A stretch of 64,000 nt of DNA from a virus: the IMG/VR virus record IMGVR_UViG_3300025849_000018, positions 30,928 through 94,927 of that record, one strand, 5' to 3'. Under the pieces are notes generated by a model. That model was not told the origin of the DNA and ran no database searches. It saw only the letters and a list, made by a program, of their open reading frames with translations. Shown in pieces: positions 8,301 through 43,600 of this stretch. Position numbers and translations under genes: made by a program. Each line of letters starts with the position of its first letter. The stretch's first letter is position 1.

Positions 8301-9029
8301 TTAGATAGACCCTTCTGAGAAAGGATTTGTTTCGGTGAAGTCTATAATATCAGCACCGGATGACTGGAACGTAGCATTCTCGGAAAATGGATCATCAGTA
8401 GTGTAATCAGGTGCGGAAACTGGTCGTCCAGTGTTCGCGTCCATAATAATATCACCGTTCGCATATGTTGAGTCGGCGTTTGACACGGCAATATTTTCAG
8501 AATATAATTTCTCTAAATTGTCAATCTCAGGAACGCCTGTATTTAAATCTTCATGACTATATTCAAACAATTCGCAACGCAAATCATAACACTGTAAGGC
8601 ACCCATTTGATAAAAGTTAGGTGCTTCATGTTCAGCAATCTTGATAACATATACTTTACCGGTAAGTGGGAAAAATATCAAGTCACCTTCTTCAGGCCGA
8701 ACCTGTATTTCTGGCGCGCCTATTTCGTTGGAAAATACTCTCTGTGAAACAGTGAAGGTAATTTCATCACGAATCTGAATATTGAACTTAGAGAGAAAGT
8801 CACCTTCACCCTCAAACCCCTCAACATTCTTAATATACATTTCAACCAGATATGCATCATTATAGGAGGCAACGGTAACTTCTCCAAAAATATCATCTTG
8901 TTCATCAATTGTTCTCGGGCAGTAATACAAATCATGACCGTAGATTTTAATTGATTCAATGATCAAATCTTCGATTAGATTTTGTTCTGCATAACTCTGA
9001 AAATTATTGAAGAAGACGTTGGTTGTCAT
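8301..9029 (-). CDS. 14: Neck protein gp14
   Basis: A 242-residue protein (T4 gp14 is 256). The family signature FFNNFQSYAEQNLIEDLIIE near the N-terminus and YGHDLYYCPRT just after it are clear. Together with gp13 it makes the neck that closes the filled head and accepts the tail. The C-terminal 60 residues are rich in Ser, Asp and Asn with repeated DPFSENA and NPFSEGS motifs. Its ATG is 4 bases after the gp13 stop. Confidence 0.93.
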   Translation of the reverse strand: MTTNVFFNNFQSYAEQNLIEDLIIESIKIYGHDLYYCPRTIDEQDDIFGEVTVASYNDAYLVEMYIKNVEGFEGEGDFLSKFNIQIRDEITFTVSQRVFSNEIGAPEIQVRPEEGDLIFFPLTGKVYVIKIAEHEAPNFYQMGALQCYDLRCELFEYSHEDLNTGVPEIDNLEKLYSENIAVSNADSTYANGDIIMDANTGRPVSAPDYTTDDPFSENATFQSSGADIIDFTETNPFSEGSI

Positions 9030-9825: not shown

Positions 9826-10629
9826 TTATTGTCTCCAGAACTCAAGACCCCGCACATCACTTATAACTTGTGGAGGCAAAACATCCGCTGGCTTTCTACA
9901 ATAGTATTTTATTTTAGAACTGACATGATGCATATCAGACAATCCATAGACTTTATTATCCTTCTCTCTATGTTTATTATATAGATTTTTATAATCATGT
10001 TGATAATAGGGTTGTTCTATAAAATTATAGATTGATTTCATAGTCGCGTCTGTATTTTCTACTAGATCAGAATATTCAACTAAGAGTATGTTATCCTTTA
10101 ATTCGCCCGACAAAGCATTTTTCAATCCTGTATATGCTCTTCCTAGAGGACCATCTGATGCGATATACTGACAACGTGTAAAATCATTCAGAGGAAGATT
10201 ATTGGATTGTAGAAACCTATCAATAAAATTCAATTTCTTGTCTTGATTTCGCGAAATCATCGCGATGAAAGAAGTTAACACTTCGTCGAGATTTCGCACA
10301 GTACATATAATCTTTGGATTTTTTATATCAAAATATTTTGAAATATATTCGGGTCGGTGTGTCCAACTTCTATTCTTATCAAAAATAATATCTTCTTTTA
10401 CATCATTATAATAATTGTATAATGAAGATTGCAACATGCTTTTTTTATACGCGGGTTTTGGATATGATTTATACAGGTCATTATTTTCTATAGAAGATTC
10501 AAGTGCGACGATCGAACCACATACAGGAGAACTTGGACCACTATAAAATGTAGGATTTTGATTTAACAAAGCAGACAACATTGAACTGCCGCTTCGCGGA
10601 AGTCCAGACAAAAAATAATAAGTTTTCAT
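9826..10629 (-). CDS. Sulfotransferase-family enzyme
   Basis: A 267-residue cytosolic-type sulfotransferase. The PAPS 5'-phosphosulfate loop is visible as SGLPRSGSSMLSALLNQNP (8-26) and the 3'-phosphate motif as CTVRNLDEVLTSFIAM (109-124, with Arg112 and the Ser/Thr expected for PAPS). It should move sulfate from PAPS to a hydroxyl or amine of an unknown acceptor such as a glycan. There is no signal peptide. It is the second gene of a two-gene unit with the oxygenase 3 bases upstream; both share a sigma-70-like promoter at 11200-11228. The DNA looks AT-richer than the flanking gp13 and FG-GAP genes, which suggests acquisition. Related sulfotransferase genes occur in marine phages; the substrate here cannot be inferred. 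Confidence 0.87.
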   Translation of the reverse strand: MKTYYFLSGLPRSGSSMLSALLNQNPTFYSGPSSPVCGSIVALESSIENNDLYKSYPKPAYKKSMLQSSLYNYYNDVKEDIIFDKNRSWTHRPEYISKYFDIKNPKIICTVRNLDEVLTSFIAMISRNQDKKLNFIDRFLQSNNLPLNDFTRCQYIASDGPLGRAYTGLKNALSGELKDNILLVEYSDLVENTDATMKSIYNFIEQPYYQHDYKNLYNKHREKDNKVYGLSDMHHVSSKIKYYCRKPADVLPPQVISDVRGLEFWRQ

Positions 10630-10632
10630 AAT

Positions 10633-11172
10633 CTACTTCTCAAAGAAAATACTCAGACTAAAACGATACTTTGGACCTAGTCTCGATTGCGGCCGGATTG
10701 TATGTGGAATTTCTCCATCAAACCAAATGATTCTTCCTGGCACAAATCGCGATCCAAAGATAATATCGTGGTTCTCGTTCTTATCATAGAACAATGTCTC
10801 ACCCGACCAATGATCTTGCCAATCCATATTTACATAATATAGAAAAACATTTTCGTTGATGTGTGTATGTGTCCAATGTGTGTTTGTACATACATCATTG
10901 TTTACAATACAACGAATGAATTTGTCGGGATTAATTTTCTCGTGTAAAGGATGTCCCTCTACAAAATCAGAAAAGAAATTGATTGAATTGAGTTTTTCGG
11001 GAGTCCACCGAGAGAACATATATTGTTCGGAATTGTCAGTATTATCAGACCACCCTATCTGATAAGGACATTTTTTCACCGACTCTTGTATATCAAATCT
11101 TTTTGCTAAACTAAAGACATTATCATATACATCAACTCCTTTTATAGGAGAGTAGTGTGTTATCTTTTTCAT
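10633..11172 (-). CDS. 2OG-Fe(II) oxygenase-like protein (prolyl-4-hydroxylase type)
   Basis: A 179-residue double-stranded beta-helix protein. The C-terminal half follows the 2OG-Fe(II) oxygenase pattern: THTHIN (101-106), a YYVNMDW strand, GETLFYD (124-130), PGRIIWFDGEIPHTIRP with distal His157, and R170 in YRFSLSIFF for 2-oxoglutarate. The usual H-x-D iron motif is not evident: the site reads H-x-H or H-x-N, so either the carboxylate ligand differs or activity is altered. The likely reaction is hydroxylation using 2-oxoglutarate and oxygen. SD is GGAAG before the ATG. It leads the sulfotransferase unit from a sigma-70-like promoter. Confidence 0.8.
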   Translation of the reverse strand: MKKITHYSPIKGVDVYDNVFSLAKRFDIQESVKKCPYQIGWSDNTDNSEQYMFSRWTPEKLNSINFFSDFVEGHPLHEKINPDKFIRCIVNNDVCTNTHWTHTHINENVFLYYVNMDWQDHWSGETLFYDKNENHDIIFGSRFVPGRIIWFDGEIPHTIRPQSRLGPKYRFSLSIFFEK

Positions 11173-11199: not shown

Positions 11200-11228
11200 A
11201 TCATATCACAAAAATATATTACTGTCAA
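11200..11228 (-). promoter_or_regulatory. Sigma-70-type promoter for oxygenase-sulfotransferase pair
   Basis: On the minus strand TTGACA (11228-11223) is followed by exactly 17 bases and TATGAT (11205-11200): 11 of 12 consensus positions with optimal spacing. It begins at the stop of the FG-GAP gene and lies about 28 bases before the oxygenase ATG. This is a host-polymerase promoter by pattern, unlike the TATAAATA promoters of the structural genes. Confidence 0.75.
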
Positions 11229-12445
11229 TCTAAAATATCCAGATGATGTTTTACGAATGGTGTGTTCCAAATATATGCTGAACCAGATGAACCACCATTA
11301 TCGTCATCCAGATAAGAACCAACCACGATTCTACCTGATCCTACCGCAACTGATCTACCGAACCTGTCATTTGACGCAGCATCACTGGCAACTATCTTGG
11401 CGAGTTGAGTGCCATCCAGATCAAAGATATATGATGAACCAGAATCATCACCATCACCATAAGCACCAACCACGATTCTACCTGATCCTACCGCAACTGA
11501 GAAACCGAAACTGTCACCCGACGCACCATCACTGGCAGTTATCTTGGCTAGTTGGGTGCCATCCAGATCAAAGATATATGCTGAACCAGTCTGACCACCA
11601 TTGACGTCATCACCATAAGAACCAACCACGATTCTACCTGATCCTACCGCAACTGAGTGACCGAACCTGTCACCCGCCGCAGCATCACTGGCAGTTATCT
11701 TGGTTAGTTGGGTGCCATCCAGATCAAAGATATATGCTGAACCAGACTCACTACCATCATCGTCATCCAGACTAGCACCAACCACGATTCTACCTGATCC
11801 TATCGCAACTGAGGTACCGAACCTGTCACCATTGTTAGCATCACTGGCAGTTATCTTGGTTAGTTGGGTACCATCCAGATCAAAGATATATGCTGAACCA
11901 GATGCAGAACCATCATCGTCATCCACCAAAGCACCAACCACGATTCTACCTGATCCTACCGCAACTATTTCCCCGAAATAGTCAGTCGCCGCACCATCAC
12001 TTGATTTTATCTTGGCGAGTTGGGTGCCATCCAGATCAAAGATATATGCTGAACCAGACTGACTACCATTATCGTCATCACCCGAAGCACCAACCACGAT
12101 TCTGCCTGATCCTATCGCAACTGAGACACCGAAAAAGTCACTTCCCGCAGCATCACTGGCAGTCATCTTGGCGATTTGAGTGCCATCCAGATCATAGATA
12201 TATGCTGAACCAGACTGACTACCATTATCGTCATTACTATAAGCACCAACACAGATTCTACCTGATCCTACCGCAACTGAGTAACCGAACTCGTCACTTG
12301 ACGCACCATCACTGGCAGTTATCTTGGTTTCATTGCTGGGTGTAGTGGTATCATCATATTCATCAGTAACACCCATATCCTCTTCATAAAAACTTAGGTC
12401 TCTGCTTAAAAAACTACCAAATGTAGATATATTTCTATAAGGCAT
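11225..12445 (-). CDS. FG-GAP repeat propeller protein A (putative fibre or adhesin)
   Basis: A 406-residue protein of seven near-identical blades of about 52 residues (about residues 43-395), each with DxFGxSVAVGSGRIVVGA, a DDDNGS-type acidic loop and SGSAYIFDLDGTQLAKI. Seven FG-GAP blades predict a closed integrin-alpha-like beta-propeller with calcium loops. The short N-terminus (MPYRNISTFGSFLSRDLSFY) differs from the two paralogues and may be the virion attachment part. No signal peptide. Neighbouring fibre-assembly-like and fibre genes suggest a receptor-binding tail component; that role is inferred. SD is GGAG in the end of the upstream gene. Confidence 0.85.
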   Translation of the reverse strand: MPYRNISTFGSFLSRDLSFYEEDMGVTDEYDDTTTPSNETKITASDGASSDEFGYSVAVGSGRICVGAYSNDDNGSQSGSAYIYDLDGTQIAKMTASDAAGSDFFGVSVAIGSGRIVVGASGDDDNGSQSGSAYIFDLDGTQLAKIKSSDGAATDYFGEIVAVGSGRIVVGALVDDDDGSASGSAYIFDLDGTQLTKITASDANNGDRFGTSVAIGSGRIVVGASLDDDDGSESGSAYIFDLDGTQLTKITASDAAAGDRFGHSVAVGSGRIVVGSYGDDVNGGQTGSAYIFDLDGTQLAKITASDGASGDSFGFSVAVGSGRIVVGAYGDGDDSGSSYIFDLDGTQLAKIVASDAASNDRFGRSVAVGSGRIVVGSYLDDDNGGSSGSAYIWNTPFVKHHLDILD

Positions 12446-13066
12446 TTACAATGCTCCAATTGTGTCTATAGCACTCCAAGTTGTATCATCTTCTGTATCA
12501 ATGCTGTTTAACTTGTTTTTGTTATCCTGATAACGACCGAGTAAATCACCGAAGGCCACTCGCATTAGGTTATCTTTGTCAACAATCTTCTGAGCAAGTA
12601 CATCAACAGTTTCACCACGATTCGTGGACATTATTGAAATCATTGGTACAACCGAAGTGTTATCAGCAAGGTATCTCTCTGCTTCAGAAACCTGTACATA
12701 CCAACTTTCCCTTTCTGACAGAGGGTAGTCTTTTACCATTTCTCCCGACAGATATGCAAACCGTTTCTCATTATTCTGATCTTTTGTTTTATGTAATGCC
12801 AGAAATTTCTTCTTACGGTCTGCATCATCTTCAAAGTATCGAGCTTCAATCGTATAATTTAAAATATATGCATCACCATTTCTAGTAATATCAGCATATC
12901 GTAAAACCTCATCCCACGCAGTCGCTGGCCGATTTGTGTAGGTATCAACTTCAACTACATCATCCGGTAAAGTCTCGCCCCTTTGAATATTTCCAGTGAG
13001 TTCATTATTCCTATAAGGAAACTCAATAACGTCACCTGTTGTTGTATCTATTCTTGCGTAATTCAT
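12446..13066 (-). CDS. Tail fibre assembly-like protein
   Basis: A 206-residue protein. The N-terminus (YARIDTTTGDVIEFPYRNNEL) resembles the small domain that starts many phage tail fibre assembly proteins, compare the MYVKIANNLVETYPYSVRQL of the gene at 19149. The C-terminal half has the pattern WYVQVSEAERYLADNTS..P.I..M...RG, as in DUF4376-type assembly proteins with a repeated helical hairpin (key residues W, E, A, L). It sits between FG-GAP genes A and B, as an assembly chaperone beside its fibre. The role is inferred from pattern and place. (The N-terminal motif is quoted through its first 20 residues.). Confidence 0.7.
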   Translation of the reverse strand: MNYARIDTTTGDVIEFPYRNNELTGNIQRGETLPDDVVEVDTYTNRPATAWDEVLRYADITRNGDAYILNYTIEARYFEDDADRKKKFLALHKTKDQNNEKRFAYLSGEMVKDYPLSERESWYVQVSEAERYLADNTSVVPMISIMSTNRGETVDVLAQKIVDKDNLMRVAFGDLLGRYQDNKNKLNSIDTEDDTTWSAIDTIGAL

Positions 13067-13067
13067 A

Positions 13068-14267
13068 TTAGTATCCTAATTGTCTTTCAATATAAGTGTC
13101 GAAATTTTCGTCCAGATCATAGATATATGCTGAACCAGAATCAGTAGCAGTATCGTCATCGAAATCAGCACCAACCACGATTCTACCTGATCCTATCGCA
13201 AGTGAGACACCGAAATGGTCAGCATTCGCAGCATCACTGGAAACTATCTTGGCGAGTTGGGTGCCATCCAGATCAAAGATATATGCTGAACCAGAACCAG
13301 TAGCACCGTACGGAGGATGTCCGCCAACCACGATTCTACCTGATCCTACCGCAACTGATCTACCGAACTCGTCATCTGCCGCGCCATCACTGGCCTTTAT
13401 CTTGGCTAGTTGGGTGCCATCCAGATCAAAGATATATGCTGAACCAGAATTAGAACCATTATCGTCATCGTCATAAGCACCAACACAGATTCTACCTGAT
13501 CCTATCGCAACTGAGAAACCGAAACTGTCATCTGCCGCGCCATCACTGGCAGTTATCTTGGTTAGTTGGGTACCATCCAGATCAAAGATATATGCTGAAC
13601 CAGAATTAGAACCATTATCGTCATCACGATAAGCACCAACCACGATTCTACCTGATCCTACCGCAACTGATCTACCGAACAGGTCACCTGCCGCAGCATC
13701 ACTGGCCTTTATCCTGGTTAGTTGGGTACCATCCAGATCAAAGATATATGCTGAACCAGCTAGACCATCATCTGCATCAGCACCAACCACGATTCTACCT
13801 GATCCTACCGCAACTCCGGCACCGAACTGGTCACCTGTCTGCAAACCGGTACCTTCTATAATGGCGATTTGGGTGCCATCCAGATCAAAGATATATGCAT
13901 GACCCCCGCCCGCCTTGTAAGCACCAACCACGATTCTACCTGATCCTACCGCAACTGAGAAACCGAAAAAGTCACCTCCATCAGCATCACTAGCAACTAT
14001 CTTGGCGATTTGGGTGCCATCCAGATCAAAGATATATGCTGAACCAGAATTAGAACCAGCTAGACTATCATCACGAGAAGCACCAACCACGATTCTACCT
14101 GATCCTACCGCAACTGAGAAACCGAACTGGTCATTTGACGCAGCATCACTGGCAACTATCTTGGTTTCGGTACTCTGTATGGTTCCAGTCAGGCGATTAA
14201 ACGATTTGTGCAATAGTTCGCCTTTGTCACTTATTACTATATCACTTGCGCTGTCTTTAAAGGCCAT
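13068..14267 (-). CDS. FG-GAP repeat propeller protein B
   Basis: A 399-residue protein from the ATG at 14265-14267, which overlaps the stop of the upstream gene as TAATG and has AGTGG upstream; a 20-codon longer reading is unlikely. Seven FG-GAP blades follow a 30-residue head (MAFKDSASDIVISDKGELLH). Blades 2, 3 and 6 are shortened or altered in the acidic loop (KAGGGH, DADDGLAG, HPPYGATGSG), so the exposed loops differ from paralogues A and C while the core strands are nearly identical. Ends in ERQLGY; paralogue C ends in WESGY. Probably a fibre or adhesin tip; the receptor is unknown. Confidence 0.84.
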   Translation of the reverse strand: MAFKDSASDIVISDKGELLHKSFNRLTGTIQSTETKIVASDAASNDQFGFSVAVGSGRIVVGASRDDSLAGSNSGSAYIFDLDGTQIAKIVASDADGGDFFGFSVAVGSGRIVVGAYKAGGGHAYIFDLDGTQIAIIEGTGLQTGDQFGAGVAVGSGRIVVGADADDGLAGSAYIFDLDGTQLTRIKASDAAAGDLFGRSVAVGSGRIVVGAYRDDDNGSNSGSAYIFDLDGTQLTKITASDGAADDSFGFSVAIGSGRICVGAYDDDDNGSNSGSAYIFDLDGTQLAKIKASDGAADDEFGRSVAVGSGRIVVGGHPPYGATGSGSAYIFDLDGTQLAKIVSSDAANADHFGVSLAIGSGRIVVGADFDDDTATDSGSAYIYDLDENFDTYIERQLGY

Positions 14268-15511
14268 TAGTATCCACTCTCCCAATCTTTTACATCGAAC
14301 GGTGTAATAACATCTGGTGTGTCCCAAATATATGCTGCGCCAGCACTACTACCATCACCATAAGCACCAACACAGATTTTACCACATCCTACCGAAATTG
14401 CGGCACCGAAATTGTCACCTGCCGCACCATCATTGGCATCTATCTTGGCGAGTTGGGTGCCATCCAGATCAAAGATATATGCTGAACCAGAATTAGAACC
14501 ATTATCGTCATCCAGATAAGCACCAACACAGATTCTACCTGATCCTATCGCAACTGATCTACCGAAATAGTCACCTGCCGCACCATCATTGGCATCTATC
14601 TTGGCGAGTTGAGTGCCATCTAGATCAAAGATATATGCTGAACCAGAATAAGTACCATTATCGTCATCACCATAAGCACCAACACAGATTCTACCTGATC
14701 CTACCGCAACTCCGGAAGTGCCGGAGGCGAATGGCGCCGATCGACCGAAATAGTCGCCAATGTCACCATCACTTGGTTTTATCTTGGCGAGTTGATTGCC
14801 ATCCAGATCAAAGATATATGCTGCGCCAGAATAAGAACCATTATCGCTATCCCCCGAAGCACCAACTACAATTCTATCGCATCCTACGGCGACTGATTCA
14901 CCGAATCGTTTACTCTCCTCTACATCACTGGCAACTATCTTGGTTATTAGAACACCATCCAGATCATAGATATATGCTGAACCAGAATTATTCTCATTAC
15001 CGTCATTGATACCGTCATCAAATAGGGCACCAACTACGATTCTACCTGATCCTACCGCAACTGATCTACCGAACCTGTCATTTGACGCAGCATCACTGGC
15101 AACTATCTTGGCGAGTTGAGTGCCATCCAGATCAAAGATATATGCTGAACCAGCTTGACTAGCATCACCATAAGCACCAACACAGATTCTACTTGATCCT
15201 ACCGCAATTGAAGCACCGAACAGGTCACTCGCCGCGCCATCACTGGCAGTTATCTTGGCGAGTTGAGTGCCATCTAGATCAAAGATATATGCTGAACCAG
15301 ATGCAGAACCATTATCGTCATCACCATAAGCACCAACACAAATTCTACCTGATCCTACCGCAACTTGCCCACCGAAATAGTCCGAATCCGCAGTATCACT
15401 ACCAACTATCTTGGTTTCATTGCTGGGTGCAGTGTCAACATCTCCTGATCCGTACATAAACGGAATTCCACTCTGACTCAAAACTGCAACGTTATTTACT
15501 TTAAATGTCAC
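14267..15511 (-). CDS. FG-GAP repeat propeller protein C
   Basis: A 414-residue protein. I place the start at GTG 15509-15511 (MTFKVNNVAVLSQSG) because GGAG lies 6 bases upstream; the TTG four codons earlier has no SD. Seven blades follow, two with inserts: blade 3 carries FDDGINDGNENN in its acidic loop and blade 5 a duplicated segment (SAPFASGTSGVAVGSG). Several VV pairs are replaced by CV (RICVGAY). It is the first gene of the FG-GAP operon, with a consensus late promoter about 50 bases upstream. Predicted closed beta-propeller, probably surface-exposed on the virion. Confidence 0.85.
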   Translation of the reverse strand: MTFKVNNVAVLSQSGIPFMYGSGDVDTAPSNETKIVGSDTADSDYFGGQVAVGSGRICVGAYGDDDNGSASGSAYIFDLDGTQLAKITASDGAASDLFGASIAVGSSRICVGAYGDASQAGSAYIFDLDGTQLAKIVASDAASNDRFGRSVAVGSGRIVVGALFDDGINDGNENNSGSAYIYDLDGVLITKIVASDVEESKRFGESVAVGCDRIVVGASGDSDNGSYSGAAYIFDLDGNQLAKIKPSDGDIGDYFGRSAPFASGTSGVAVGSGRICVGAYGDDDNGTYSGSAYIFDLDGTQLAKIDANDGAAGDYFGRSVAIGSGRICVGAYLDDDNGSNSGSAYIFDLDGTQLAKIDANDGAAGDNFGAAISVGCGKICVGAYGDGSSAGAAYIWDTPDVITPFDVKDWESGY

Positions 15512-15529
15512 TAAATTCTCCAATACATA

Positions 15530-15558
15530 TTGACAAATGAGTTAAATATAAGTATAAT
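15530..15558 (+). promoter_or_regulatory. Perfect sigma-70 promoter for glycosyltransferase-methyltransferase unit
   Basis: TTGACA (15530-15535), exactly 17 bases, TATAAT (15553-15558): a full match to the bacterial housekeeping consensus. It reads rightward into the plus-strand glycosyltransferase with a leader of about 35 bases. It lies back to back with the late promoter of the minus-strand FG-GAP operon. Confidence 0.82.
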
Positions 15559-15560
15559 TG

Positions 15561-15568
15561 TATTTATA
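15561..15568 (-). promoter_or_regulatory. T4-type late promoter for FG-GAP operon
   Basis: The minus strand reads TATAAATA, a perfect late consensus, about 50 bases before the GTG of FG-GAP gene C. Its transcript would run across the sigma-70 promoter of the plus-strand unit, so late transcription could interfere with it. Confidence 0.73.
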
Positions 15569-15599
15569 CTAAAACAATCCTCTTTGAGAACCTTATTAT

Positions 15600-18233
15600 A
15601 TGAAACTTTGCTTTGTTGATACACTCGGCCTCTGTTATGATGGATCCACACTCGATAAAAGAGGATTAGGTGGTTCCGAGTCCGCAATCATTCTAATGTC
15701 AAAAGAACTTGTTCAACTAGGATTCGAAGTTACTGTATTTAACGACTGTATACACGACGATGCAAATCCAGGCATCTATGACGGTGTTACATATCGTTCT
15801 CTACATGACATAGAACAATATCATAATTACTTCGATATTTATATCTCTTCAAGATCAGTGGTTTCATTTGCACCCAACTCAATGAAAGAAAGATTTAAGT
15901 GGGCAGACAAACTACCTAATCTTGAAAGTGTCGCAATGACATCTAAACATCGTGTACTCTGGATGCATGATACATTCTGTGATGGTGATGATCTGATTGA
16001 AGACTTTGTATTACGAGGTCGCATTCATGAAATCTTTACTCTGTCTGATTGGCATACATCATATGTAACAACATGTAATCACGGCAAACAACGAAGTTAT
16101 GAAACACTGAAACAATATATTTTCCAAACTCGCAATGGTATTCAACTTCATCACGAATGGGTAGATGTAAAAGCAAAAGACCCCGATCTGTTTGTTTATA
16201 ATGCGTCAGTTACAAAGGGTATGATACCTCTTGTGAATAATGTGTGGCCGATTGTCAAAGAAAAACTACCTAATGCGAAACTCAAGGTCATTGGTGGTTT
16301 CTATCGATTTCGATCTACACATGGTCCAGATCAACAGGAACTTGACTGGCGAGATATGGTTGATAATCCAGTTCACGCAGATAGAGACATAGAGTTTACT
16401 GGTATCATATCACAAAAAGAAATCGCTGACATACTTGTGAAGTCTTCATATATGATATATCCTTCTGCGTTTCCTGAAACATTTGGCATCTCTACACTTG
16501 AGTCTCTCGCATATAATACACCACTCATTACTTGTCGTTTCGGCGCACTTGAAGAAACTGCGATTGATGTTGCTTGTTATAAAATACCTTATCCAATACA
16601 ACCAAACTTTCAATTACCGTCAATTGATACCGATATTCAATCGGCAATCTTTGCTGATGCTGTTGTTCGCGCATACAACACTCCTTATCTACATCAACAG
16701 AAGATGTATGCTTGTAATCAAGTCAAAGATATTTGTGCGTGGTCAACAGTCGCATTACAATGGAAACAACACTTCTATAAACTAATGGGTGACTTCTTAT
16801 CAATCCAAGAATATCGTAAAGTGACTGATATTAACAATCGTGTTCATAAAGTATTTGGTCGCCGTTTTCATAACTACGAAGAAGCGACCATTCGCAAACA
16901 GATAGAGAAACCTATTGTAGTTATTACTGCTGTTTATAATGCAGAGAATTATATTGACAAGTGTATTCGTTCTGTTGCGGCACAGGATTATGAAAACTAT
17001 CGGATGATTATTATTAATGATGCATCAACAGATCGCACTGCTGAGGTGATTGAAAATACAATCGCTGAAACTGGTCTTGAAAACTTTGAGGTGATTACTC
17101 GTAAAGAAAATGTGGGAGCAGTGTTCAATCAAATATCAACCATTCAATCAAAATGTGACCCAGAAGATATTACAATGATCCTTGATGGTGATGATTGGTT
17201 AGTCAATAATTCAAATATCTTTAACCTGTATAATAATCTATATCATGATGGCGCAGAATATACCTATGGCAGTTGCTGGTCGTTAGTTGATAAGATACCA
17301 TTGATTGCTCAACCTTATCCACCAGAAGTCAAAGCGAATAAGTCTTATCGCGATTATAAATTCAACTGGAACTTTCCGTATCCGCATTTAAGAACTTTTC
17401 TTGGTAGACTTGCCTTGGACCTAGACGCCACACTGTTCCAAGACGCGCAGGGCGAATGGTATCGTGCAGGTGGGGATAACTCTACCTTCTACAACATCAT
17501 TGAACAGGCAGACCCAGAGAAGGTCGTATGCGTGCCTGACATCGTATATAACTACAACGACACCAATCCAATCAACGACTATAAAGTGAATGGCACAGAA
17601 CAGAATGAAACTGCAAATAACATTTTAGGAAAAAATATGAAGAAAACTAAACGAATATTGATTGCTATTCCCACAGCGAAGTATATTGAACCAGAGACAA
17701 TGAAGTCAATCTATGATCAGATTATTCCAGAAGGTTATCAAACTGAGTTTCAGTTCTTCTATGGTTATCAGATTGATCAAATTCGTAATCTGATTGCTAA
17801 CTGGATGGAAAATAAAGATTATGATTATTTGTTCTCCGTTGACTCGGATATTATATTCCCTCCTGATACATTGATTCGCCTACTCGATCATGATAAAGAT
17901 TTGGTCACAGGAATATATCGGCAACGACTGCCTAATCAAACTCTTGAGGTATATGATCAAAATCTACAGAATATTCCAATTGAAAATTTACCTAATAACT
18001 CTCTAATAGAAATTGGCGGTTGTGGTTTCGGTTGCGTTTTAGTTAAGAAAAAATTATTTGTTAAGATTGGTTATCCGCAGTTTGTTTATCATTCAGCGAT
18101 TGACCATAAAGATACTTTCAGTGAAGATAATTATTTCTGTAAAGCAGCGAGAGAAAATGGTTTTCAACTGTATGCTGATACCAGTCTTTTCTGCGGTCAT
18201 AAAGGAACACATGTATACGAGGTTGTCAAATGA
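15600..18233 (+). CDS. Three-domain glycosyltransferase (GT4-like, GT2 and a further GT-A-like domain)
   Basis: An 877-residue cytosolic protein. Domain 1 (1 to about 395) is GT-B/GT4-like: Gly-rich GLGGSES loop (22-28) and PSAFPETFGISTLESLAYN (about 288-306) with the nucleotide-sugar E-x7-E pattern. Domain 2 (about 435-640) is GT2: VVITAVYNAENYIDKCIRSV, NDASTDRT and metal site LDGDDW (about 527-532). Domain 3 (680-877) is another GT-A-like fold with SVDSDIIFPPD (about 746-756). Met680 is preceded by AGGA, so domain 3 might also be made separately. It should add two or three sugars to an unknown acceptor (envelope glycan, or phage protein or DNA). It is driven by a perfect sigma-70 promoter and translationally coupled (ATGA) to the FkbM methyltransferase. 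Confidence 0.88.
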   Translation: MKLCFVDTLGLCYDGSTLDKRGLGGSESAIILMSKELVQLGFEVTVFNDCIHDDANPGIYDGVTYRSLHDIEQYHNYFDIYISSRSVVSFAPNSMKERFKWADKLPNLESVAMTSKHRVLWMHDTFCDGDDLIEDFVLRGRIHEIFTLSDWHTSYVTTCNHGKQRSYETLKQYIFQTRNGIQLHHEWVDVKAKDPDLFVYNASVTKGMIPLVNNVWPIVKEKLPNAKLKVIGGFYRFRSTHGPDQQELDWRDMVDNPVHADRDIEFTGIISQKEIADILVKSSYMIYPSAFPETFGISTLESLAYNTPLITCRFGALEETAIDVACYKIPYPIQPNFQLPSIDTDIQSAIFADAVVRAYNTPYLHQQKMYACNQVKDICAWSTVALQWKQHFYKLMGDFLSIQEYRKVTDINNRVHKVFGRRFHNYEEATIRKQIEKPIVVITAVYNAENYIDKCIRSVAAQDYENYRMIIINDASTDRTAEVIENTIAETGLENFEVITRKENVGAVFNQISTIQSKCDPEDITMILDGDDWLVNNSNIFNLYNNLYHDGAEYTYGSCWSLVDKIPLIAQPYPPEVKANKSYRDYKFNWNFPYPHLRTFLGRLALDLDATLFQDAQGEWYRAGGDNSTFYNIIEQADPEKVVCVPDIVYNYNDTNPINDYKVNGTEQNETANNILGKNMKKTKRILIAIPTAKYIEPETMKSIYDQIIPEGYQTEFQFFYGYQIDQIRNLIANWMENKDYDYLFSVDSDIIFPPDTLIRLLDHDKDLVTGIYRQRLPNQTLEVYDQNLQNIPIENLPNNSLIEIGGCGFGCVLVKKKLFVKIGYPQFVYHSAIDHKDTFSEDNYFCKAARENGFQLYADTSLFCGHKGTHVYEVVK

Positions 18234-18895
18234 GTTACGAATCTCTAACACATCAAGTAGAAGAAAAGATTGACAATGTGGAATCTTGGACTTGGATTGA
18301 AAAAGACTGGGAAGGTTTTCGTTGGCCAAAAGAAGATTGGCAAGATGCGATCAAAGGGTTGATTGAAAAACATGTGAACAGTAGAACTGTTGTCGTTCAG
18401 GCAGGAGGATTACAGGGAATGTATCCAAGATTACTCAGCGATATGTTTGAACGAGTATATACCTTTGAACCTGATCCTCTCAGTTTTCATTGTCTTGTCA
18501 ATAACTGTCAAAAAGATAATATCATAAAAATACAAGCTGCGGTCGGTGAACACAATGGTCTCATAGACATCAATAGATTTTGCGAACACAATGTTGGAAT
18601 GAACAGTGTGATACAAGGTAACAAGTATCCAATGTTTACCATTGACTCACTGGGTTTAGATACATGTGACTTTATACAGTTAGATGTAGAGGGGTTTGAG
18701 ATTCCCGCATTGCGTGGTGCCAGTAACACCATTGATAAATTCAGACCAGTGTTGTGTATTGAAACAAGAGTGGGAACTGAAAAAGAGGTGAATGATTATA
18801 TGAGTAATTTACGATATTACAATATTGATACGTATCATCACGATAGTTTTTGGTTGCCGATTATTCAACATCAACCAAAGGGATTTGTTTCCTAA
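18230..18895 (+). CDS. FkbM-family SAM-dependent methyltransferase
   Basis: A 221-residue protein. SAM-binding motif VVVQAGGLQGMYP (54-66), acidic loop YTFEPDP (77-83), and the FkbM signature TIDSLGLDTCDFIQLDVEGFE (137-157; key residues D139, D151, E154, G155, E157). FkbM enzymes O-methylate sugars or polyketide hydroxyls and often sit with glycosyltransferases. It starts in an ATGA overlap with the glycosyltransferase, so the pair probably builds a methylated glycan. Its stop overlaps the stop of the convergent gene at 18892, leaving no space for a terminator. (In the quoted signature the key stretch is CDFIQLDVEGFE.). Confidence 0.88.
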   Translation: MSYESLTHQVEEKIDNVESWTWIEKDWEGFRWPKEDWQDAIKGLIEKHVNSRTVVVQAGGLQGMYPRLLSDMFERVYTFEPDPLSFHCLVNNCQKDNIIKIQAAVGEHNGLIDINRFCEHNVGMNSVIQGNKYPMFTIDSLGLDTCDFIQLDVEGFEIPALRGASNTIDKFRPVLCIETRVGTEKEVNDYMSNLRYYNIDTYHHDSFWLPIIQHQPKGFVS

Positions 18896-19707: not shown

Positions 19708-20325
19708 TTACGATCCAAATCCTGAAGCATCAAGTCCTGAGTCTTCAGTCCAAATTCGAATCTCATCTATAGTGCCATTAAAGTTTACTTCATAAGCAGA
19801 GCCAATGTCTGCAATGCCTGAGTTATTTTGCCCGTATCCTTTACCGTTGCTTCCGTAAACTTGACTTTGCCCCCCGCCAGCAGTATCAGTTCCTAGTTCA
19901 ACTATTGAGTTTGCCGATCCTTTGCCGCCTTCTTGTACATAGACCGTGAGAGTAAAGGTGCTTGCATCAACAACAATATAATAGGTTGCGTCTGATCCAG
20001 TATATGAGGATATATCGACCTCAACCTCTGCTGCATCTGGATCAGTTCCCCATGAGGAATTTCCAGCACTGTCAAAAGCCCTTGCGCGTAAAGTCCCATT
20101 ATTGACCCCAACAGCCAAACCAGCACCACCATTGCCGCCCAAATCAATTAAAACACCGTCATTAGTTGATGAAATGTTGGCATCAATCGCTATGAGAACA
20201 TCATAAAAACCGAACACCCCAGTTCCGGTGCTTGGGAAAGACGTTATCGTGTAGTCTGGCGTACCGTAGTCCGCTTCATAATCAAACTCGACAAAAGACG
20301 AAAGTAGTGCTTTAAATCTGAACAT
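19708..20325 (-). CDS. LamG-like (concanavalin-fold) virion protein
   Basis: A 205-residue protein from the ATG at 20323-20325, a TAATG overlap with the upstream collagen-like gene; a 17-codon longer reading is unlikely. It has a jelly-roll lectin pattern: VLIDLGGNGGAGLAVGVNNG, a TFTLTVYVQEGG strand, and the closing motif NFNGTIDEIRIW that is typical of LamG domains. Probably a carbohydrate-binding fibre tip or accessory protein paired with the collagen-like stalk encoded just upstream. Confidence 0.74.
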   Translation of the reverse strand: MFRFKALLSSFVEFDYEADYGTPDYTITSFPSTGTGVFGFYDVLIAIDANISSTNDGVLIDLGGNGGAGLAVGVNNGTLRARAFDSAGNSSWGTDPDAAEVEVDISSYTGSDATYYIVVDASTFTLTVYVQEGGKGSANSIVELGTDTAGGGQSQVYGSNGKGYGQNNSGIADIGSAYEVNFNGTIDEIRIWTEDSGLDASGFGS

Positions 20326-20699
20326 TAAGAAGAAACCCCAACCAATGCTCCATATAATACTGAACCAACTTTCCACACATTAATAATTGTTTCATTTGTT
20401 GTATCAAGCGTTGGAGCAGTACCGCCAATCCATTCCATTGTCGGCCAAGTAATTGTGTATGCTGTTCCGTCGAGAATATGCATTGTGATATATTCGCCTG
20501 TTGTAAGACTATCACTGAATGTAGAACTCGCAGAAAGTGTCAAGTTTTGAATTGTACCATTTGAAGGATCAAGGGCAAATGTTGCACCAACTGTCGCGTT
20601 TGTATAAACATTTTCTTGAATTGCTTTTGCGAATGTTACAGTTTCATCTGAACCAATAGTAATTGCCGTGGCATCACCGTTGTCTACAATACTCGTGAC

Positions 20700-22918
<2,219 letters not shown>

Positions 22919-27478: not shown

Positions 27479-28432
27479 TTAAACTCCTTTCCTTGATATT
27501 TCTATATATGCGGTATTAGAAACAGAACCAGTGTTATCTGAATTTTGAACATACATTTCCAGATAATCATTCTCAGCGAGCGAATATATTTCGTCCAAAG
27601 AAACTGTGGAGTTTGGACCGAGAGTGGCTGTTTCAAGTGTTGTTGTGGCATTTTTCTTTAAAGAAAAAGTATACGAATCAGAAGAACCTGCTGATGTCGT
27701 TGTAAACAGACCATTTACTCTATAGTATCCATCAACCTTTATTGTCAGTCTTGATGCTGTACCATTGCTCCAATATTCTGATCCCAATACATCAGCATTT
27801 TGATCATATTCTGTTTCGGAAAAGGTGATCGCCGTGTCGCTGGATGTTACCGAAAAGGGAGAGGTCAAATAAGTCTTAGCACCTGAGAAAGCACTCCAAG
27901 TAGAAATGCCTGTGCCGAGAGATAGACCTTCTTGAGTAAATTCTATGAAACTTGTATCGCTTTCTATTGAACCTGCGGCCGTGCTTTCTGCCGCAAAAAT
28001 TTCTATATAATCTCCAACAGTTAGTTGTAATACATCTTCAAAATTGACAAACTGATTACTTGATACAGTTGTTGTTGATAACTGTGTTCCATTTTTATAA
28101 ATCGCGATTGTATATGAAGAAGCAGTACCACCCGCAGTTGTGTTTATCTGACCATTCAACCGATAAAATCCATTCTCAGTAATAGAAAATCTTGTCGGTG
28201 CTGAGACAGTCCAAAGACCAGCGGTGTCAAATTCTTCAGTTGTCCAGGATATTCCTGTCATCGTTTCACTTAACGCGAAGTCCGAAGATAACTTGAGTTT
28301 CGCACCTTTAAATGCTCTCTTTGTTGAACGTGTGATCACGTCCCACTTCTCGCCATCCCATTGCCACACAGCAGCATTGTCATCTGTATATGTGTCATTC
28401 GTTGACGGTGATGTTGGAAAATCTAATGCCAT
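27479..28432 (-). CDS. Fibre-locus protein with two C1q-like domains
   Basis: A 317-residue protein. The N-terminal module FPTSPSTNDTYT..WQWDGEKW (about 4-33) is shared with the two collagen-like genes at 20325 and 21041. Two tandem domains follow (about 38-170 and 180-317), each with FKGAKL or FSGAKT, a RFSITENGFYRLNG-type strand pair, an IYKNGT or LKKNAT hairpin and GDYIEI or NDYLEM, the jelly-roll pattern of C1q/TNF-like domains. Such domains trimerise at fibre ends and bind ligands. It arose by internal duplication. Confidence 0.74.
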   Translation of the reverse strand: MALDFPTSPSTNDTYTDDNAAVWQWDGEKWDVITRSTKRAFKGAKLKLSSDFALSETMTGISWTTEEFDTAGLWTVSAPTRFSITENGFYRLNGQINTTAGGTASSYTIAIYKNGTQLSTTTVSSNQFVNFEDVLQLTVGDYIEIFAAESTAAGSIESDTSFIEFTQEGLSLGTGISTWSAFSGAKTYLTSPFSVTSSDTAITFSETEYDQNADVLGSEYWSNGTASRLTIKVDGYYRVNGLFTTTSAGSSDSYTFSLKKNATTTLETATLGPNSTVSLDEIYSLAENDYLEMYVQNSDNTGSVSNTAYIEISRKGV

Positions 28433-29228: not shown

Positions 29229-31823
<2,595 letters not shown>

Positions 31824-40666: not shown

Positions 40667-43600
40667 TTATTTAAGTGAAAATCTGGCCGTGCTAACGAGG
40701 CCCGAACCAACCATCGATCTATCTAATGAACCACCAGAAGAATAACTAACATCTGTTGTTGATGGTGCTGTTATATTATATCCTGTCAGATCAGGTATTG
40801 TCATGCCACCGAGATTTGTTGGCAGATATGTTGAATTAATTTTCTGAACCGCTTCTTCAATTTTAGTTTTCTGTACAATAGGTATCTGAGTGGTGACGGG
40901 TGGCGGGTCAAAACTCGCACTAGGACTAAACCCGAGTAAATCTTCCCTATTTGTCTTAGGAAGTCCTGTATCAGGTGTCTTGATCGGCACAGGAGTTTTC
41001 ACCGGTCGTATACATATTGGCCAACGGACTGGCCGCGTAGGCGGCTTATAAGTCGGCTGCCATGGGGGTTTGATGACCGGATTACTGGGTGAAGGTGGTC
41101 TATCAGGATTAGTTGCCCAAACGGGTAACTGTATATCATTTAGACAGTCTCTCGGATATGTAATATAGTACTCATGGGCCCACGAAGCTTTCACCACTCT
41201 CACCTTCAAGTATCGACCAGCACTAGCATTATATGGAAAAGTTAGAACACCAATATGTGTGGTCCAATAGTTCTGCACAGCGTCCTTACTCGATTGTGCG
41301 AAGTCTTTGCGACCCGTCCAGTTTGGCGCCCAATGCTTGTTTATGTTATAGTTTGGGTCTTTATTCTGTAGTTGTCGCCTTCTGTCTGGTGTGATATTAG
41401 TAGGAGTTAAAGTCTGACTATTATATATCTCTGTAAATCCAGTTGACGGCGATGACGATTGGAAAATTTCGAATCTATCCTTTCCGCCGTACAAATCAAA
41501 TTCGATCGTAATGTTCATCCCATCAGCATCGGCATTTGAAGACAGTGTAAATGTATTTTCTTCGAATACCGTACCGTTGTTTGCATTCTTTCGGTGATGG
41601 TTTGAAATAAACACCTCGGTATTGCAAACAGTGATCTCCGGCGGCGGAGGATCGATATCAACGATTACCGGTCCATCGGTGATATCATTCTGAGAAATAA
41701 TTTTGCGTCTGTCGGAGGATAATTTTGCTTCGTGTAAAGAGACAAAACTATTTTTTGTATTTTCATCCATATTCAACTTAATATTGTAAGACTCGCTCGC
41801 TGGCAATAATAATCCGCCAAAGAAAGTTGTGTTCTGCTCTGGATGTGCGAGATCAGTAAAACTGGCACTTGTAAAATTATCAACAAAAAATCCAAACTTA
41901 AATCTTTCTAATGTTGAATCAACTGAACTCGGAATAGTCTTGTCTTTTACCTGATCTTCTGTTTCACTTAAATTGACATAATACTCCAGTGTGGCAATTC
42001 TTCGTTCAAGTTTGCCAATCTCTTCCATTGTATATCCGGGTGCCTGATCATCGATTGAAGAGATTTTAGTTGTGTATCGTTGCCTTCTTAGTTTAGCAGA
42101 TGAACCCGCAAGTCCAGTTTCGAGAATGTCAACAATTTCAGTTGACAATGCGCCAGGCAAAGTTGGATATGCAGGTACATTAATTTCATAAAGATTTAAT
42201 TCTGATGCAGTTTTAGTGGGTGTTTTTTTAACATCAGTTAAAACAGTATACGGCCGACTTTGGTCGTCCTTCGCAATCACAATATCTTTTCGGGGATTAT
42301 AAAATACCATTGAACAGAACATATCACTTTCTGGCGCGGGAAACTTTATAGTCCCAGCAAATCGTGATGCATCAACTGCTTTTAATGGGTTTACCGGAGC
42401 GTCTGCGGCCGCGGTATTGGCAGTTACCGTGTTCGATGTGACTGGTCTAAAATCAATCGCTTCTCTTAGATCGTGATAGTTACCAGTGCCGCCAACAAAC
42501 TCTGGAATCTCAAGTGTATTGACATTTGCCGTCAGGTCAGTTAAAGCAACACCATCTTCAACAGTGTATGAACTGACAGTCTTGACACCTTGTCCAGAGT
42601 GTGATGTATAATCAAACTCAACGAGAATAAACTTGTTCTCTAAACTCAGACTTGATCCGTATTTCAAGTGTAAGGATCCGAGATCATAATAGTTTTCAGT
42701 GTGATTTGCGTCAATATAAAACTGATCAGTAACATTCGTATCGGTCTCATCGACAGCAGAAGCAGAACCCAGATAAACATTTCTAAGACGAATGATGTCT
42801 GAATGACCAAGACACCAAGGACCAGACGAACCAGCAGCATTGAGGTCGGTATTTATTTTCACAAAAACATTTCTTACGGCAGTTTTAGCAACAGAGTTGG
42901 TCGATGTTCCGTCAGCGCGTTGATTGTATACTACGGAGACATTTGCAGCTGCCGAGATGTTAATGTCCATATCTACTGTTAAAGTAGAACCGGTCACTGT
43001 CGCAGTAGCATCGGGTCTGCCAGATAATGGTATTGGGACGCCGGTAGGATAACACCGCGTTAGAGCGCCAGTAGAAAGCGTTGAGGTGGGCAAATAATTC
43101 AATACTGTATCACTTACAACTTCCTTGACAAGAACAGTGGTGGCACCAATTTTAATATAATCGCCTGCACTTAGAGTGGTAAGAAAAGCAGACGCGCTGG
43201 CGGTGAGCACCCCTGTTGTTGATGAGACCCAAGTGCCAAGCGAGAGAGTGTCAATAAAATCTTCTTCGGGAGTAATGATCAATTCTCTTTCTTCAACAAA
43301 AGATAACGCGCCACTATAATTCCAAGTCGCGTTGGTGTCTGCCGAAAGTGTGAAGATTCCCGCCGTGCTGGATTCGACATTGGTCGCAGTAGATCGGTAT
43401 TGATAGTCAACATTTGCTACCGACTTGAGAGGATATACTGTATCAAACAACAGAGAGTTTCTGTTTGTTTCTTTCATTACAGCACCGGTACCTGAGGTCG
43501 CGCCTGCCACCGGTTCTAATATCAAATCGCCGATTGCCCCAGCAACGAAGATTGATTTAACATCAAAGAACTTTTTGCCTTGACTCATTTTAACATCAAA

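What the first reader, a model, noticed from the sequence alone, without database searches (positions are those of the whole stretch)
15530..18895. Perfect sigma-70 promoter drives an inverted glycosyltransferase-methyltransferase cassette inside the late region
Directly seen: TTGACA, 17 bases, TATAAT, reading into a plus-strand two-gene unit flanked by minus-strand late genes. A 12 of 12 match with ideal spacing is unlikely by chance. It suggests early or constitutive expression by host RNA polymerase, unlike the TATAAATA structural genes. The enzymes (three glycosyltransferase domains plus FkbM) would then act on the host, for example changing envelope glycans to exclude other phages, rather than decorate virions. 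The function is inference.
Basis: partly seen in the sequence, partly recalled or inferred. Interest (0 to 1): 0.85.

Follow-up and report, generated by a model that had tools for sequence, protein, structure and literature searches.

The report
Phage sugar-enzyme pair with shared two-way promoter
An uncultured T4-like phage carries a back-to-front pair of sugar-attaching and methyl-adding genes with its own host-type promoter, squeezed against the phage's late promoter for a surface protein on the other strand; relatives keep this layout inside the tail-fibre genes, so the enzymes may well decorate the phage's own fibres rather than the host, which only experiments can settle.

Summary
TTGACA-N17-TATAAT lies at 15530-15558 (+), 41 bp before a glycosyltransferase (GT) gene and overlapping FkbM methyltransferase gene, an inverted unit in a long run of minus-strand genes. 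The perfect match alone proves little: two of the record's five perfect sites lie inside genes. Placed sites are convincing: 7 observed upstream of genes, 0.25 expected; only two are in the late region.

Two points change the picture. First, the same 76-bp gap carries a minus-strand TATAAATA two bases from the -10, driving the neighbouring FG-GAP gene; the phage encodes a gp55-like late sigma. Across 26 divergent loci, 22 keep that late box and 10 have a significant sigma-70 site (p=2.5e-7; none on the other strand). Second, relatives place the GT beside collagen-like fibre and fibre-assembly genes, and several fuse FkbM into the same polypeptide.

So host-RNA-polymerase expression is well supported. 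'Acts on the host, not virions' is not: early timing cannot decide it, and location leans towards fibres. Some relatives also have a plus-strand late box, so early-only expression is unproven. Glycosyltransferases in the host-recognition region of T4-like phages, and a host O-chain role, are already in the literature.

The parts
15530..15558 (+). sigma-70 promoter TTGACA-17-TATAAT for the GT/FkbM pair
15561..15568 (-). late promoter box TATAAATA (reads TATTTATA on +) for the leftward FG-GAP gene; two bases from the sigma-70 -10
   Evidence: kept in 22 of 26 divergent loci
15547..15554 (+). TATAAGTA, 7/8 match to a late box overlapping the -10; possible second (late) promoter for the GT, unproven
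15600..18233 (+). 877-aa glycosyltransferase: GT-B domain (about 1-420, EX7E E293/E301 invariant), GT-A domain (about 436-675, D529-G-D531 invariant), second GT-A domain (about 683-877, D748-S-D750 nearly invariant)
18230..18895 (+). 221-aa FkbM-type methyltransferase, overlapping the GT stop by 4 bases
14267..15523 (-). FG-GAP repeat protein, divergent partner; likely start GTG at 15511 behind GGAG
11225..14327 (-). FG-GAP protein 13068-14327, a protein of unknown function 12446-13066 and a further repeat protein 11225-12445 (shares the weak phrog_7808 match of the FG-GAP proteins)
10633..11172 (-). weak 2OG-Fe(II) oxygenase-like protein; the only other late-region gene with an >=11/12 sigma-70 site (TTGACA-17-TATGAT, 11228-11200)
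9826..10629 (-). sulfotransferase, next gene downstream of the oxygenase-like gene
20325..22918 (-). two collagen-like (Gly-X-Y) fibre genes on the other side of the cassette

Best explanation
The cassette is a glycan-building module of a T4-like phage with its own host-RNA-polymerase promoter. The 76-bp gap is a two-way promoter region: sigma-70 RNA polymerase transcribes the GT and methyltransferase rightwards from early in infection; later the gp55-type late holoenzyme takes the overlapping TATAAATA and transcribes the adhesin gene leftwards. Because both polymerases need the same DNA, and late minus-strand transcription runs against the cassette, the late phase would tend to turn the pair down (inference). 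The soluble three-domain GT builds a short saccharide and FkbM O-methylates it, as the trifunctional WsaE does. The most likely acceptors are the phage's own fibre/adhesin proteins, with the enzymes made ahead of their late substrates. Shown by sequence: promoter elements, their recurrence, domains, active-site motifs, fusions, neighbourhood. Inferred: timing, mutual exclusion, acceptor.
For: Position-specific sigma-70 enrichment. Of 26 divergent loci, 10 have a significant sigma-70 site on the GT strand and none on the other; 22 have the opposed late box, usually 19-42 nt before the GT start, against 1.4 expected; none of 13 co-directional relatives has it. The close relative L016 (85% identical GT) keeps -35, -10 and late box with a changed spacer (TTGAAA-17-TATAAT). 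A gp55-like sigma is encoded. FkbM domains are fused into the GT in L018, L019, L022, L062, L069 at different positions. Loci with the GT hold collagen-like genes in 13 of 22 clusters against 4 of 39 lineage loci without it (p=8e-5); the immediate divergent neighbour is collagen-like in 9 of 24 (about 4 expected); a tail-fibre assembly homologue (phrog_3304) lies next to or within a few genes of the GT in about half of the divergent clusters.
Against: No transcript or glycan data. Sixteen of 26 divergent loci lack a significant sigma-70 site. Some relatives have a plus-strand late box (6 exact, 0.8 expected), so the pair could also be late. The collagen association compares unequal windows and related phages. 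In the window the divergent partner is an FG-GAP protein, not collagen-like. Sister phages carry Kdo- and heptose-type sugar genes in the corresponding slot, which hints at envelope sugars.
Confidence: 0.5

Rival explanations
1. One reading: early-made GT and FkbM alter host envelope glycans (LPS or capsule) so that competing phages cannot adsorb.
For: sigma-70 promoter; proposed in the literature for glycosyltransferases in pelagimyophage host-recognition regions (PMC7029224); sister phages carry inverted cassettes with a KdsA-like DAHP/KDO synthase, an HldE-like kinase-cytidylyltransferase and a nucleotide-sugar epimerase upstream of the same head-tail gene.
Against: No gtrA/gtrC-like membrane partner genes recognised next to it; location inside the tail-fibre module and fibre association point the other way; early timing does not discriminate.
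Confidence: 0.3
2. The pair is expressed late, or both early and late, from weak plus-strand late boxes, and the sigma-70 match contributes little.
For: TATAAGTA at 15547-15554; exact plus-strand TATAAATA in 6 of 26 loci against 0.8 expected; one operon of this phage that includes the tail tube gene (before -4247) has a sigma-70 site and a TATAAATA side by side.
Against: No exact plus-strand box in the window or in 20 of 26 loci; the sigma-70 site is perfect and recurs without spacer conservation.
Confidence: 0.15
3. The perfect promoter match is a chance event and the cassette is read through from elsewhere.
For: Two of five perfect sites in the record lie inside genes.
Against: No plus-strand gene of note lies upstream in the late region from which to read through; position-specific enrichment 7 vs 0.25; recurrence in relatives.
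Confidence: 0.04

Closest known systems
T4-type sigma-70 early and gp55 late promoters
   Same: TTGACA/TATAAT-type sites before early-region genes, TATAAATA before late genes, gp55-like sigma encoded; T4-like phages are known to carry early promoters before novel ORFs (PMC1524935)
   Different: here the two promoter types sit back to back within 76 bp, with the boxes a few bases apart or overlapping in many relatives
WsaE, trifunctional enzyme of Geobacillus S-layer glycan assembly (PMC2943079)
   Same: soluble enzyme joining two glycosyltransferase domains with a sugar O-methyltransferase that caps the glycan
   Different: phage enzyme has a GT-B plus two GT-A domains; FkbM is a separate gene in the window and fused only in relatives; no sequence test of homology to WsaE was made
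Glycosyltransferases in the host-recognition region of pelagimyophages and cyanomyophages (PMC7029224)
   Same: GT genes among tail-fibre genes of T4-like aquatic phages that also encode collagen-repeat proteins
   Different: the family most represented there is GT8; this is a GT4-GT2-GT2-like polyenzyme with FkbM and a shared promoter
Viral collagen glycosyltransferase R699 of Mimivirus (PMC9546862) and human LH3/ColGalT1
   Same: tandem GT-A folds matched by Foldseek; collagen-like genes nearby
   Different: no sequence-level match, low TM-scores over the tandem, no linked hydroxylase
STIV A197, a GT-A glycosyltransferase-fold protein of an archaeal virus (2c0n)
   Same: third domain matches it by sequence profile and fold
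   Different: single-domain protein of an unrelated virus

Membership tests
host sigma-70 (early-type) promoter | -35/-10 hexamers with 16-18 bp spacing at a proper distance before a gene | tested here: met
   12/12, 17 bp, -10 ends 41 bp before the ATG
host sigma-70 (early-type) promoter | transcription starts there early in infection | not testable with these tools
   no RNA data
T4-type late promoter (for the divergent gene) | TATAAATA before the gene and a gp55-like sigma in the genome | tested here: met
   15568-15561 and phrog_234 hit E=7e-56
classical moron | own promoter | tested here: met
classical moron | own terminator | tested here: not met
   no terminator-like site between 18895 and 19591; FkbM overlaps the convergent gene by 4 bases
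classical moron | absent between the flanking genes in relatives | tested here: met
   only 4 of 80 loci around the head-tail gene carry it in the stretch held (two of them are this phage)
GtrABC O-antigen conversion | gtrA/gtrB/gtrC membrane gene set | tested here: not met
   only a weak GtrB-like (phrog_841) match of the GT-A domain; no such neighbours
collagen glycosyltransferase (LH3/ColGalT1/R699) | sequence homology | tested here: not met
   profile search of PDB sequences did not hit them; fold-level only
collagen glycosyltransferase (LH3/ColGalT1/R699) | partner 2OG-Fe(II) hydroxylase linked to the GT | tested here: not met
   8 of 28 GT records against 11 of 28 control records
WsaE-like GT plus O-methyltransferase | GT and methyltransferase domains in one polypeptide | tested here: inconclusive
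   separate genes in the window, fused in L018, L019, L022, L062, L069

The most novel reading that the evidence does not exclude
A compact early/late toggle: overlapping, opposed sigma-70 and gp55 promoters first make a glycan-assembling, O-methylating polyenzyme and then, by promoter occlusion, switch the same spot to making the collagen-like or propeller fibre that the enzyme decorates before it folds: a phage counterpart of collagen glycosylation, spread over many uncultured T4-like phages.
Probability: 0.2. Interest if true: 0.72.

Novelty: new variant of a known kind. Interest (0 to 1): 0.45.

Why it matters
If right, it would be a timing device in which the DNA that starts a modifying enzyme is the DNA that later starts its substrate, and it would make phage fibre glycosylation testable in a large uncultured group. 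If the host-envelope model is right instead, it is an example of a known competition strategy. Either way, the shared promoter region and the GT-GT-GT-FkbM polyenzyme give concrete markers for finding such modules.

Tried and rejected
Cultured or deposited phages: no DNA match, no full-length protein match. Linked 2OG-Fe(II) oxygenase as a collagen hydroxylase: no association. Cellular homologues as a guide to substrate: the only full-length hit is a phage-like contig in a gammaproteobacterial MAG (L089); the others match only the first domain or less, in Brocadia, planctomycete and Syntrophobacterales bins. Anchoring the collagen test on the fibre-assembly gene gave only 7 loci, too few. A terminator for the cassette: none. 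Foreign base composition: GC 0.37 against 0.40, not decisive. Literature on phage GT plus FkbM: nothing specific.

Full report
What is there. The window is bases 30928-94927 of a 94,927-base IMG/VR record of a T4-like myovirus: portal, sheath, terminase, scaffold, major head protein, UvsY and a gp55-like late sigma are recognisable. TTGACA-N17-TATAAT at 15530-15558 (+) is real and precedes an 877-aa glycosyltransferase gene and an overlapping 221-aa FkbM methyltransferase gene, the only plus-strand unit within the late region up to 59465.

Chance. Perfect sites are over-represented in this record (5 against 0.13 expected), but two of the five are inside genes, one of them antisense, so the perfect match alone is weak evidence. 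Restricting to sites of at least 11/12 placed 10-75 nt before a gene on the right strand gives 7 against 0.25 expected; five are in the early region, and the late region has only this one and one before the oxygenase-like gene 10633-11172. The site therefore belongs to the phage's own promoter class.

The 76-bp gap also holds TATAAATA on the minus strand (15568-15561), 38 nt before the ORF call of the FG-GAP gene, whose likely start is GTG 15511 behind GGAG. TATAAATA is enriched in the record (20 against 6.9) and often sits before late genes. The gap is thus a divergent sigma-70/late promoter pair.

Comparative test. About 80 viral loci encode relatives of the GT, in 34 clusters at 90% identity. 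Most are inverted relative to their left neighbour, others co-directional. Among 26 representatives of divergent loci (the window, 22 further viral representatives, and L089, L139, L165), 22 carry the opposed TATAAATA (1.4 expected), and 10 have a sigma-70 site at p<=0.05 on the GT strand (binomial p=2.5e-7) with none on the other strand; none of 13 co-directional loci has the opposed late box. Strong sites are scattered on the GT tree (8 changes of the label). The close relative L016 keeps -35, -10 and the late box but not the spacer. Caveats: 16 of 26 lack a significant sigma-70 site, and an exact plus-strand TATAAATA occurs in 6 of 26 (0.8 expected); the window has TATAAGTA at 15547-15554. 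Early-only expression is therefore not established.

The enzyme. The AlphaFold2 model (34 sequences, mean pLDDT 87, pTM 0.73) is confident. Domain hits, the profile search and fold matches divide it into a GT-B domain and two GT-A domains. Active-site motifs are conserved: E293/E301, D529-G-D531, D748-S-D750. The last domain matches STIV A197 by profile and fold. Fold matches of the tandem GT-A part include heparosan and chondroitin synthases, Mimivirus R699 and LH3/ColGalT1, but with low TM-scores, so they show fold, not function. FkbM domains are fused between or after the GT domains in several relatives, so the two activities most likely act in one pathway. WsaE is the closest working analogue (PMC2943079).

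Target. GT-bearing loci are rich in collagen-like genes (13 of 22 clusters against 4 of 39 controls, p=8e-5; windows not identical and phages related). The divergent neighbour is collagen-like in 9 of 24 clusters (about 4 expected). A tail-fibre assembly homologue (phrog_3304) lies next to or within a few genes of the GT in about half of the divergent clusters. This favours the phage's fibres as acceptors. Against it, sister phages carry other inverted sugar cassettes upstream of the same head-tail gene, including KdsA-like and HldE-like enzymes, and the literature proposes host O-chain change for such genes (PMC7029224). A linked hydroxylase, expected for true collagen chemistry, is not found.

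Verdict. Observation confirmed; host-polymerase expression well supported; the host-versus-virion conclusion does not follow and is at best open. The promoter pair and polyenzyme are a new variant of known phage parts.

Noticed in passing
window 10633-11172 and 9826-10629 (-): A weak 2OG-Fe(II) oxygenase-like gene (PHROG label 'DNA endonuclease V') with its own near-perfect sigma-70 site, followed by a sulfotransferase; a second enzyme unit in the late region.
   Followed up: partly
window 8480-8508 (+) and 42582-42612 (+): TTGACA/TATAAT sites (spacers 17 and 19) antisense inside minus-strand structural genes.
   Followed up: no
window 13068-15523 (-): Two adjacent FG-GAP repeat proteins (integrin-like propellers, seven matched repeats each) beside the cassette.
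   Followed up: no
L108:6975-9936, L117:11-5764, L141:8615-9915, L145:5687-9349: In sister phages the slot upstream of the head-tail adaptor gene holds other inverted cassettes: GT2 + 2OG-oxygenase + KdsA-like (L108); eight genes of which three were searched without a Pfam match (L117); DUF6445 (L141); HldE-like kinase-cytidylyltransferase + epimerase (L145).
   Followed up: partly
window 27479-28432 (-): Sub-threshold match to the BclA C-terminal domain, one gene away from a long collagen-like gene (29229-31823).
   Followed up: no
L088, window coordinates -4159 to -4217 (-): A perfect sigma-70 site and a TATAAATA close together before a small gene and the tail-tube gene, so sigma-70 sites do not mark only non-structural genes.
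   Followed up: partly
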